In this document: piece by piece, positions 13,554 through 19,884 of the stretch
How positions within the stretch are numbered: position 1 is the first letter of the stretch
How the letters are laid out: the number at the start of each line of letters is the position of its first letter
Assembly: GCA_018110985.1 (NCBI GenBank)
Contig: JAGAWT010000002.1
Coordinates: 1 to 64,000 of the forward strand
Reading direction: 5' to 3'
DNA: 64,000 bases
DNA from: Oscillospiraceae bacterium
GTDB lineage: Bacteria > Bacillota > Clostridia > Oscillospirales > Ruminococcaceae
Made by a program: the position numbers and the translations under genes
The notes under the pieces: model-generated
Told to the model about the DNA's origin: nothing
Seen by the model: the letters and a program-made list of their open reading frames with translations, nothing else
The model's database searches: none

Positions 13554-13611
13554 TAGTAAAAATCCCTAAAAATCATGCACAAAGTATGTGAGTTATTTTC
13601 AGGGAAATCTA

Positions 13612-13640
13612 TTGACATTGAACAAAAGATATGGTAGTAT
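13612..13640 (+). promoter_or_regulatory. Promoter of the repetitive plus-strand transcript
   Basis: TTGACA (13612-13617) is followed after 17 bases by TAGTAT (13635-13640). A perfect TATAAT overlaps it 3 bases further on (20-base spacing). Transcription would enter the motif-rich 13.65-14.98 kb region. Confidence 0.6.
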
Positions 13641-13735
13641 AATATCAACGACAGGGAAGTCCGAAAGGAAACAGCTCGAGGGAGCATTCCAAGGAGGTAC
13701 CGGTCGAATATGCGAAAGGTTTGGAGGCGAGTCCC

Positions 13736-13798
13736 ATGGCAACAGTGACACAGCTTAAAAGAGAGTTCCGCAGCGGCTCGGCTCTCGGCGAGATTTAG
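13736..13798 (+). CDS. 20-codon small ORF at the head of the mini-ORF array
   Basis: The ATG at 13736 has GGAGG 8 bases upstream (13723-13727) and sits in a repeat copy (GAGTCCCATGG). The frame runs MATVTQLKREF... to a TAG at 13796-13798. The predicted peptide is short and basic in the middle. I recognise no family. Translation is plausible from the ribosome site but function is unknown. Confidence 0.3.
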   Translation: MATVTQLKREFRSGSALGEI

Positions 13799-14102
13799 GG
13801 AAGTTTAAAGGTAGTTGCGGCGAAGTTGCCGCCCACTTCCGGAGTTAAAAGATCTTGCTTTTGAACCGATAAGCTTGAGCCGCAGGAGCTGCAGCATGAG
13901 GACATCCTCTGTTAGGTGCATCTCGGGCGGTATTTTTGTACCCCCGAACAAGAAAACGAGGTGCGGAGTTGGCGGATGTCTCAGTCTTTCCCGACGGTTC
14001 TCTCTTTATCAAAGCTGTAACGGAAAAACGACGGAGGTTTTTCCAAGGAAGCCTATCATCCTGCGGGGTGGTATAGACACACTCGTAACAGAGGTGATCA
14101 TT

Positions 14103-14138
14103 ATGAAAGGTTTCAGGTTTGCATCCGCTTTCATCTGA
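14103..14138 (+). CDS. 11-codon small ORF within the array
   Basis: GAGGTGAT (14091-14098) precedes an ATG at 14103 by 4 bases. The frame reads MKGFRFASAFI and stops with TGA. It is hydrophobic/aromatic with two basic residues. It may be a leader-type peptide or chance. Confidence 0.25.
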   Translation: MKGFRFASAFI

Positions 14139-14940
14139 TTAAAAGGGAGTGAGTCCAACAGGCTACTTAGTACGGCTGTAACTTTTCGTACAGCAGAGGT
14201 TTGAAGACTTTAAGTTAGGAGTGAGTCCAAAAAGCAGTTCACAGAGCGGGCGCATGGTCCGCAGGATAGCTTTATGAATGGAAGGAGCACTTCTGGTATG
14301 CAGACACGAGGTTTTCACGATCTGAATCACAGGTAACGCCGGGTCTTCGGATGGTCTTTCGGGGGCTGCGGAAAAAACAGACAGACAATACACGGTGAGA
14401 GGTACGGTCCAATGGACAGTTAAAGATCATTACGAGTTTCCTATCCATAAATATGTTGAAGGAGATACTCCGATGTACAGTTTATAGTTTCTCTCGACTC
14501 GTTTTACAGATCCCGGATGTTAAGGAGTTAGTCCCATGGACAGTTAGGTTTTTTACAAAGATCGACTCTGAGTAAAGGAGATAATTCCAATGTGCTGAGC
14601 AAGGCTTTTCGGCAACACTTTAGGATTTGTTTGGCTTGTATAAGGAGAAGTCCCATGGACAGTTGAAATTGCGTATCGGCTGCAAATTCATGAAAAGGAG
14701 AAGGATCCCGATGGCATGATCACTTTTATCCGGTGATATTTAAAATGTCAGGAGATAGTCCAATGGAAAGTTAGTTACCATAAATTTACCGCATGATGAA
14801 TGCTTTAAATAGAATTCTCAGTATTCCTGAAAGGAAGCGTTTAAAGGAACTATTTTGAAGTTTATTCGGGCACTATAGATGAGAGGGAGTGATTCCACCT
14901 GAAAGGTCAGTCGGGCTCGTGTGACGAGCAGGAAGAATAA

Positions 14941-14977
14941 ACACCGCCTTGGTACGAGGGTACAAGGCGGTGTTTTG
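14941..14977 (+). terminator. Rho-independent terminator of the repetitive transcript
   Basis: A perfect ACACCGCCTT / AAGGCGGTGT stem, with a further GTAC/GTAC pairing near the loop, is followed by TTTTGTTGT. This is a strong plus-strand terminator. Confidence 0.85.
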
Positions 14978-19544: not shown

Positions 19545-19551
19545 CTGTGGC

Positions 19552-19884
19552 AACCAAGCCGATAAGCCGGGTTTTGTCGTGTGCGGTCATCTATCTGAGT
19601 GAAACGTCGCCGTAACACTTTAGCCGCCATTACAGCAAGACTGTCGAGCAAACATCATCTTGACTGTACCAATAGGCGTTGCATCGGACAGGGTTTACAC
19701 GGCAGCACGGTCTCCCGTGCCCCGGTGAGCTCTTGCCTCGCCTTTTCACCCTTACCCTTGCGGGCGGTAATTTTCTGTTGCACTTTCCCTAAGGTCGCCC
19801 TCGGCTGCCGTTAGCAGCTGCCCTGCTCTGTGATGCCCGGACTTTCCTAACGCATGAGCGTTCAGACCGCATAGCTTGCTTGCC
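19552..19884 (-). ncRNA. rnpB: RNase P RNA
   Basis: RNase P RNA is the catalytic subunit that trims tRNA 5' ends. On the minus strand the conserved blocks appear in order: AGGAAAGTCCGGGC near the 5' end, AGGGAAAGTGCAACAGAAA about 100 bases on, and the 3' AAACCCGGCTTA. The 5' AAGCAAGC can pair with the 3' GGCTTGGTT region as the closing P1 stem. About 333 bases, which is slightly short for the Bacillus type. The ends are approximate. Confidence 0.95.

What the first reader, a model, noticed from the sequence alone, without database searches (positions are those of the whole stretch)
13612..14977. A 1.3-kb promoter-to-terminator array of minimal reading frames (Shine-Dalgarno, ATG, 1-3 codons, stop)
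Between a plus-strand promoter and a strong terminator there is no normal gene. Instead a motif GGAG-N-TCC-N-ATGG recurs at least a dozen times. In seven successive copies (ATG at 14412, 14473, 14536, 14590, 14655, 14711, 14763; spacing 52-65 bases) it forms a good ribosome site, a start codon and an immediate stop, giving M-D-S three times and M-Y-S-L, M-C, M-A and M-E-S once each. The motif is kept while intervening sequence differs, so selection on the initiation unit is more likely than recent duplication. Possible roles are a ribosome or initiation-factor decoy RNA, a generator of f-Met di- to tetrapeptides, or a structured RNA whose hairpins (GTCC/GGAC around the ATG) mimic start sites.
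Basis: partly seen in the sequence, partly recalled or inferred. Interest (0 to 1): 0.8.

Follow-up and report, generated by a model that had tools for sequence, protein, structure and literature searches.

The report
RNA gene of start-stop ribosome traps
A stretch of DNA conserved across several genera of Ruminococcus-like bacteria carries a row of ribosome-binding signals about 55 bases apart whose start codons are in most copies followed within one to three codons by a stop; it is predicted to be copied into one free-standing RNA that likely loads and holds ribosomes instead of making a protein.

Summary
Window 13612-14977 is a predicted free-standing RNA: promoter, 5' domain with covarying helices, short reading frames, seven SD-ATG-(1-3 codons)-stop units 52-65 nt apart, terminator. 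It is not in Rfam. A covariance model of the 5' part matches 17 of 20 genomes of the genus and 36 of 396 sampled genomes of the family (13 of 126 genera); arrays of two or more units were seen in 16 of those 17 and in 13 of 20 fetched loci of other genera (five genera). Start-stop is kept although codons differ: in the genus 72 of 87 distinct units stop within four codons in frame, against 9 and 11 in the other frames; in other genera 41 of 46, against 2 and 4. Spacing is kept too (54 of 57 gaps are 47-77 nt; 12 expected). GTG replaces ATG in two genomes. The array reads as translation sites under selection, not a repeat, decayed gene or plain RNA motif. Best mechanism: each unit holds a ribosome by repeated initiation and termination (reported in vitro for other 2-8 codon ORFs), so the RNA works as a ribosome trap. 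Transcription, ribosome binding and role are untested. Seven literature searches found nothing like it.

The parts
13577..13590 (+). conserved upstream box GCACAAAGTATGTG, 21 nt before the -35
   Evidence: GCACAAA exact in 16 of 18 genus copies (counted by eye) and in 9 of the 19 other-genus loci with a promoter-like site
13612..13643 (+). promoter TTGACA ... TAGTATAAT, with TG before the -10
   Evidence: TTGAC with a TATA-like -10 at the same place in all 18 genus copies that hold the 5' end and in 19 of 20 fetched loci of other genera
13736..13798 (+). ORF1, MATVTQLKREFRSGSALGEI, RBS GGAGGCGAGTCC
   Evidence: ATG invariant in 18 of 18 genus copies; a short ORF listed from the same place in 18 of 20 fetched loci of other genera
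13727..13781 (+). helix pairing the ORF1 RBS (GCGAGUC) with the end of ORF1 (GGCUCG)
   Evidence: 93.7% of cells paired, one pair with a change on both sides; GACUCG in some other genera keeps pairing
13799..13840 (+). helix GGAAGU..ACUUCC with a variable inner hairpin
   Evidence: 95.2% of cells paired, 3 of 6 pairs with changes on both sides; inner hairpin covaries in 16 sequences
13879..13937 (+). terminator-like hairpin GCCGC..GCGGT followed by TTTTT, possible attenuator before the array
   Evidence: about 20 of 38 sequences with a 5' part by eye; a second detector gives the same stem in 12; not found by the scan
14103..14138 (+). micro-ORF MKGFRFASAFI
   Evidence: MKG... micro-ORF in the same order in G019, G001, G011, G003a, G003b
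14146..14156 (+). GGAGTGAGTCC motif without start codon (followed by AACAGG)
14218..14228 (+). GGAGTGAGTCC motif without start codon
14298..14336 (+). micro-ORF MQTRGFHDLNHR ([F/Y]HDLN peptide)
   Evidence: 44 of 45 HDLN-like sites have an in-frame start, against 7 and 2 in the other frames
14412..14423 (+). minimal ORF MDS
14473..14487 (+). minimal ORF MYSL
14536..14547 (+). minimal ORF MDS
14590..14598 (+). minimal ORF MC
14655..14666 (+). minimal ORF MDS
14711..14719 (+). minimal ORF MA
14763..14774 (+). minimal ORF MES
14886..14896 (+). 3'-terminal GGAGTGATTCC motif without start codon
   Evidence: such a copy before the 3' end in 12 of the 16 genus pieces that reach it
14939..14975 (+). 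terminator hairpin, T-rich tail
   Evidence: 13-nt perfect arms, loop 11

Best explanation
Window 13612-14977 is predicted to be transcribed as one free-standing RNA of about 1.3 kb whose 3' half carries a row of Shine-Dalgarno/ATG/stop units about 55 bases apart, each likely loading a ribosome that starts, makes at most three peptide bonds, stops and starts again on the same site, so that the RNA would act as a ribosome trap. Shown by sequence: a conserved promoter, the conserved units with their spacing and near stops, covarying 5' helices, micro-ORFs with a conserved peptide, and a terminator with no gene of the same strand directly after it. Inferred: that the RNA is made, that ribosomes occupy the sites, and that they are retained by repeated initiation, as reported in vitro for other ORFs of 2-8 codons (PMC6495379, passages seen). 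The most likely role is to take ribosomes and initiator tRNA out of use, or keep them in reserve, under a conserved and possibly regulated promoter and perhaps an attenuator in the 5' domain. The role in trans is the least certain step.
For: Stops within four codons in frame: 72 of 99 distinct genus units against 13 and 15 in the other frames; without ORF1, 72 of 87 against 9 and 11; other genera 41 of 46 against 2 and 4. Products vary (28 kinds in the genus), as do stop codons and Ala codons. GTG replaces ATG in VA* of G016 and G218. Spacing: in the 16 genus arrays of three or more units, 54 of 57 gaps are 47-77 nt, against 12.1 expected and 23 at most in 2000 redraws. A slot keeps its length when its ORF has 11 codons or no start: G231 55,52,50,53,51,52,49,52; first nine gaps of G160 53-57. 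SD pairing to the 16S tail at -6 kcal/mol or better: 97% of minimal units, 69% of long-ORF first ATGs, 23% of random places. The array is not unusually folded in four of five RNAs tested (z 0.8 to -0.6). Conserved promoter and terminator.
Against: No expression or ribosome data exist for any member. GGAGTGAGTCC also occurs without a start codon, so part of the motif serves something else. Of 20 fetched loci from other genera four have no minimal ORF by the regular expression and three have one; one G003 copy ends before the array; three genus genomes (G008, G013, G017) gave no match. The 5' helices and the HDLN peptide are conserved too and are not explained by a trap. The SD is in a weak GGA/UCC hairpin, which would lower loading. 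The L030 array folds better than chance (z -2.2) and the 5' domain as a whole does not (z 0.7 to -1.5).
Confidence: 0.42

Rival explanations
1. The ribosomes on the minimal ORFs serve in cis: they coat the RNA, protecting it from RNases or keeping it unfolded, so that its 5' domain and micropeptides can work. The trap is a side effect.
For: A two-codon minigene in axe-txe acts in cis, possibly by protecting its mRNA from an endonuclease (PMC8708949, abstract and outline seen). Regular spacing would give an even coat.
Against: A coat is usually provided by one long ORF (general knowledge); the spacers between units are poorly conserved, so it is unclear what the coat would protect.
Confidence: 0.2
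2. It is a polycistronic mRNA for micropeptides (ORF1 about 20 aa, HDLN peptide about 12 aa, others); the start-stop units only couple or tune their translation.
For: 44 of 45 HDLN-like sites have an in-frame start (7 and 2 in the other frames); [F/Y]HDLN kept with TTT/TTC/TAT/TAC, CAC/CAT, CTG/TTG codons; five copies in one RNA (L029).
Against: In the window the array lies after these ORFs, and in the genus it makes 28 different products of two to five residues. The codon test within the genus was inconclusive (11 synonymous, 16 non-synonymous codons). A near stop does not discriminate at the HDLN sites (44, 38 and 11 of 45 in the three frames).
Confidence: 0.17
3. The repeated GGAGUGAGUCC hairpin is a binding site for a protein or small RNA and the RNA is a sponge for it (CsrB-like in logic); start and stop codons are by-products.
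For: The 11-mer recurs with and without ATG and is well conserved.
Against: A by-product would not keep the stop in frame 72 of 87 and 41 of 46 times against 2-11 in the other frames, nor replace ATG by GTG. In many minimal units only GAGG..CC remains of the motif.
Confidence: 0.1
4. The array drains peptidyl-tRNA or initiator tRNA: short products drop off as peptidyl-tRNA and lower translation (as recalled for lambda bar minigenes).
For: Peptidyl-tRNAs drop off early in E. coli, 10.5% on average for the peptides measured (PMC10192219, passages seen).
Against: The second codons are diverse (GCA, GAC, GAA, GCT, GAT, TAC ...), so no single tRNA is targeted.
Confidence: 0.08
5. Artefact: recent tandem duplication, decayed gene or chance.
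For: Five 16-nt copies in the window are 81-100% alike.
Against: Arrays in six genera, the own one included, with different spacers and codons.
Confidence: 0.01

Closest known systems
Two-codon minigenes / mini-ORFs (lambda bar, recalled; axe-txe mg2, PMC8708949)
   Same: SD, ATG, one codon, stop; acts through the ribosome rather than through a product
   Different: the known ones named here are single units within longer transcripts; here up to eight stand in a regular row in an RNA that ends in a terminator
Very short ORFs translated repeatedly without ribosome release (mccA of microcin C, PMC6495379)
   Same: ORF length in the 2-8 codon range where repeated translation on one site was reported
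   Different: mccA makes one heptapeptide for biosynthetic enzymes; here the peptides vary; the two genes next to the window's array are MatE and DUF6847
Large structured bacterial ncRNAs (OLE, ROOL, GOLLD)
   Same: free-standing, long, narrowly distributed, covarying helices
   Different: no Rfam match; carries conserved translation starts, which those classes are not known for (recalled)
Leader peptides / uORF attenuators
   Same: SD-micro-ORF followed by a terminator-like hairpin (ORF1, 13879-13937)
   Different: no same-strand gene follows; many ORFs instead of one
CsrB/RsmZ-type sponge RNAs (recalled)
   Same: many copies of a GGA motif in one RNA

Membership tests
Any Rfam 15 family | match at or above gathering score | tested here: not met
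   no match in the window apart from RNase P elsewhere; lax searches: window stretch E 2.5-4.4; L030 one E 0.007 match to BSnc120 on the other strand over the terminator, 24.9 bits against a cut-off of 114, the rest E 1.5 or worse
minigene (start-stop ORF) | SD, start codon, 1-3 codons, stop | tested here: met
minigene (start-stop ORF) | is translated and affects translation | not testable with these tools
   needs ribosome profiling or toeprinting
leader peptide / uORF | regulated gene directly downstream | tested here: not met
   in the window a terminator (14939-14975) and then the DUF6847 gene on the other strand; other loci also end in a terminator by eye, though some have a same-strand gene further on (L026, L030)
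CsrB-type sponge | cognate CsrA-like protein in the genome | not tested
CRISPR array | near-identical repeats with unrelated spacers of constant length | tested here: not met
   only 16 nt repeat, five copies 81-100% alike; units vary
protein-coding gene | conserved long reading frame | tested here: not met
   longest + strand frames of 20 genus pieces vary from 35 to 107 aa at different places; the window's 107-aa frame matches no other longest frame below E 8 by blastp, and only G019 by tblastn below E 0.1 (56 aa, E 1e-4)
phage element | present in viral contigs | tested here: not met
   two pattern scans of viral contigs gave 7 contigs; the stretches held show no three units within 250 nt

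The most novel reading that the evidence does not exclude
A new kind of RNA gene: a ribosome-parking RNA, made from a strong, conserved promoter, that strings ribosomes at 50-60 nt intervals on start-stop sites and so sets the pool of free ribosomes in several genera of gut Clostridia. It would be an RNA counterpart of protein hibernation factors.
Probability: 0.33. Interest if true: 0.95.

Novelty: categorically new. Interest (0 to 1): 0.82.

Why it matters
If ribosomes do sit on these sites, bacteria possess a dedicated RNA for occupying them, a way of regulating translation capacity that I know only from proteins and small molecules. It also shows that selection can act on 'start, then stop' as such, in an RNA gene without a protein. 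The RNA recurs in several genera, so a cultured relative may allow a direct test. Gene finders are likely to miss it because its ORFs are too short, and Rfam lacks it.

Tried and rejected
Rejected: recent duplication, decayed gene, CRISPR-like array, viral element, Rfam family (see rivals and membership). The hairpin GTCC/GGAC around ATG: only in copies with GAC as second codon. Ribosome bypassing that would join the units into one protein: considered, not tested, no support, since codons and products vary.

Uninformative searches. Searches (promoter pattern in the own genome; promoter plus upstream box) had a wrong spacer length and did not match the window itself, so their zero counts mean nothing; one search repeats the first with the right spacer. 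The pattern (two linked units, 295 genomes of the order) also misses the own genome, so its single hit, without an array, says nothing about the order. One search found no 16S gene in the own assembly. The pattern was built from the window promoter and one rRNA promoter (G012), so their zero mismatches are by construction. Rfam found no gene in the ten loci of that search: their contigs end 90-421 nt after the promoter. The family hits outside the genus (six genomes) show no array in their loci and are taken as chance. Seven literature searches (open-access PMC only) list nothing that I recognised as such an array; PMC11109978 was looked through for terms only. A codon test of RGFHDLN inside the genus was inconclusive. 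Protein homology, structure prediction and fold searches were not used, because no protein of useful length is encoded.

Dropped before counts: identical units were counted once (104 to 99, 62 to 56); ORF1 was left out in the counts of 87 and 46; of 29 genomes of other genera that matched the model, 20 were fetched; G245, G432 and G272 were left out of the slot spacings; one search counts only runs of three or more units with gaps up to 130 nt. L028, G010 and G018 copies are cut by contig ends; G003a is a truncated copy. The HDLN pattern was written after seeing the variants and does not cover those of G001, G003a and G166.

Full report
What is there. The stretch 13612-14977 runs from a promoter (TTGACA 13612, TATAAT 13638) to a terminator hairpin (14939-14975) on the + strand. 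The simple consensus scan adds nothing; conservation does (below). No long conserved frame lies on that strand and no Rfam family matches. Before them lie three longer short frames (ORF1 MATVTQLKREFRSGSALGEI 13736, MKGFRFASAFI 14103, MQTRGFHDLNHR 14298) and copies of GGAGTGAGTCC without a start codon. The neighbours, both on the other strand, are a MatE transporter before and a DUF6847 gene after it.

It is conserved. Blastn matched 8 of 61 genomes, the own one included, all in the genus; one of these matches (G012) is only an rRNA promoter. A nucleotide pattern in named genomes gave nine MAGs called Ruminococcus sp., Oscillospiraceae or Clostridia, several with omasum, rumen, cecum or rectum in the isolate name, plus one unrelated Aestuariibacter hit. 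A covariance model built from 18 copies of the 5' part matches 17 of 20 genomes of the genus, 8 of 8 among the good ones, and 36 of 396 sampled genomes of the family at E<=0.01, in 13 of 126 genera, the own one included. Two or more minimal ORFs are present in 16 of the 17 genus genomes (the 17th, G006, is cut by a contig end) and in 13 of the 20 loci fetched from other genera, which belong to five genera (g3, g46, g116, g135, g142); three more have one, four have none. So the 5' part is known from 13 genera and the array from six. By eye, genomic neighbours differ between relatives, so the unit behaves as its own gene.

The start-stop rule is selected. The regular expression asks for an SD-like core and CC one or two bases before ATG or GTG, and says nothing about what follows. 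Of 99 distinct units in the genus, 72 stop within four codons in frame, 13 and 15 in the other two frames; elsewhere in the window 6 of 39 do. Without ORF1 the figures are 72 of 87 against 9 and 11, and, as an independent sample, 41 of 46 against 2 and 4 in other genera. The products differ: MA 22, MDS 9, MES 5, MAR 4 and 24 others in the genus. Two genomes use GTG for the start of VA* (G016, G218). Among close relatives the same slot reads MA, MAR or MALSDCP. So the start and the near stop are kept, the peptide much less.

Spacing is selected. In 16 genus arrays 54 of 57 gaps are 47-77 nt; redrawing positions inside each array gives 12.1 on average and 23 at most in 2000 draws. Across 20 genus pieces and 17 loci of other genera, gaps between slots of any kind peak at 50-59 nt (123 of 366; 217 in 40-69). 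In G231 and G153 slots of 2, 3, 5, 10 and 11 codons and a slot without a start follow each other at 49-55 nt. In G160 and G235 minimal ORFs alternate with start-less GGCGTGAGTCC slots every 52-58 nt. A start-to-start distance that ignores ORF length is what one expects if each slot has to hold one ribosome without touching the next; that is inference.

Translation signals. SD pairing with the 16S tail is about as good as at long-ORF starts (medians -8.8 and -8.3; the long-ORF starts are uncurated first ATGs). The array is not unusually folded in four of five RNAs tested, while the 3' ends with the terminator are (z -2.0 to -4.4). HDLN-like sites have an in-frame start in 44 of 45 cases (the exception is cut by a contig end), against 7 and 2 in the other frames; a near stop does not discriminate there (44, 38, 11). 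The codons vary while [F/Y]-H-D-L-N mostly stays, though within the genus the codon test is inconclusive. These micro-ORFs are probably translated and their peptide probably matters.

Structure. The ORF1 ribosome site pairs with the end of ORF1, and a second helix follows. Together 94.0% of cells pair, four pairs show changes on both sides, and none of 500 shuffles reaches the covariation score, but the number of pair types is ordinary (322 of 500 shuffles reach it), RNAalifold's covariation term is small (-0.27), and the 5' domain as a whole is not more stable than shuffles. The GGAGUGAGUCC module without ATG is often followed by a covarying hairpin (25 selected copies). A terminator-like hairpin at 13879-13937 lies before the array in about 20 of 38 sequences by eye (12 by a second detector), so the array could be under attenuation; this is a guess from shape.

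Promoter. A box GCACAAA..TGTG 21 nt before the -35 is exact in GCACAAA in 16 of 18 genus copies and in 9 of 19 promoter-bearing loci of other genera. A pattern made from this promoter and one rRNA promoter hits ten places besides RNAs of this kind, the template among them; all lie within 421 nt of a contig end and two show the 16S start. That suggests rRNA-like strength, weakly.

How it may work. ORFs of 2-8 codons can be translated over and over in vitro without the ribosome leaving (PMC6495379, passages). A free-standing RNA with a row of such ORFs would keep one ribosome per slot. I commit to a trap or reserve in trans as most likely (0.42), with a ribosome coat in cis (0.20) and micropeptides as the main product (0.17) next. 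A motif sponge (0.10) does not explain the in-frame stops. The start-less slots remain unexplained; they could bind 30S subunits without starting, or a protein.

Known or new. Single minigenes, leader peptides, repeatedly translated short ORFs and large ncRNAs are all known. A conserved, evenly spaced row of start-stop units as a separate gene is not in Rfam, and I saw none in the listings.

Noticed in passing
window 13553-13458, - strand: Strong divergent promoter (TTGACA-18-TATAAT, 12 of 12) followed after about 30-60 nt by a GGGAACGGG hairpin and T run: a possible short divergent RNA. By eye a similarly placed divergent promoter lies upstream of the RNA in G014, G015 and both G003 copies.
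   Followed up: partly
L023 (G003:C11): Two copies of the RNA about 2 kb apart; the upstream one keeps ORF1 and the HDLN micro-ORF but ends in a terminator-like hairpin before any array.
   Followed up: partly
L030 4000-4560, L029 2370-3215, G010 (L046, L057), G018 (L050, L059): The HDLN micro-ORF, mostly with its GGAGTGAGTCC-hairpin module, is multiplied in tandem (two to five copies on a contig), and assemblies of G010 and G018 break inside it.
   Followed up: partly
GGAGTGAGTCC copies in all loci: The 11-mer has three fates after it: N-ATG-G (start), R-ACA-GG or similar (no start), or R-CC (3'-terminal copy before the terminator); why the start-less copies are kept is unexplained.
   Followed up: partly
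window 19547-19882, - strand: Bacterial RNase P class A RNA.
   Followed up: no
upstream of the RNA in L026, L028, L029, L030, L033: A divergent small acidic protein gene (DUF1292 by Pfam in L030; the others by eye) is the upstream neighbour in one subgroup, while the downstream gene differs by eye (MATE-like or dynamin-like GTPase).
   Followed up: partly
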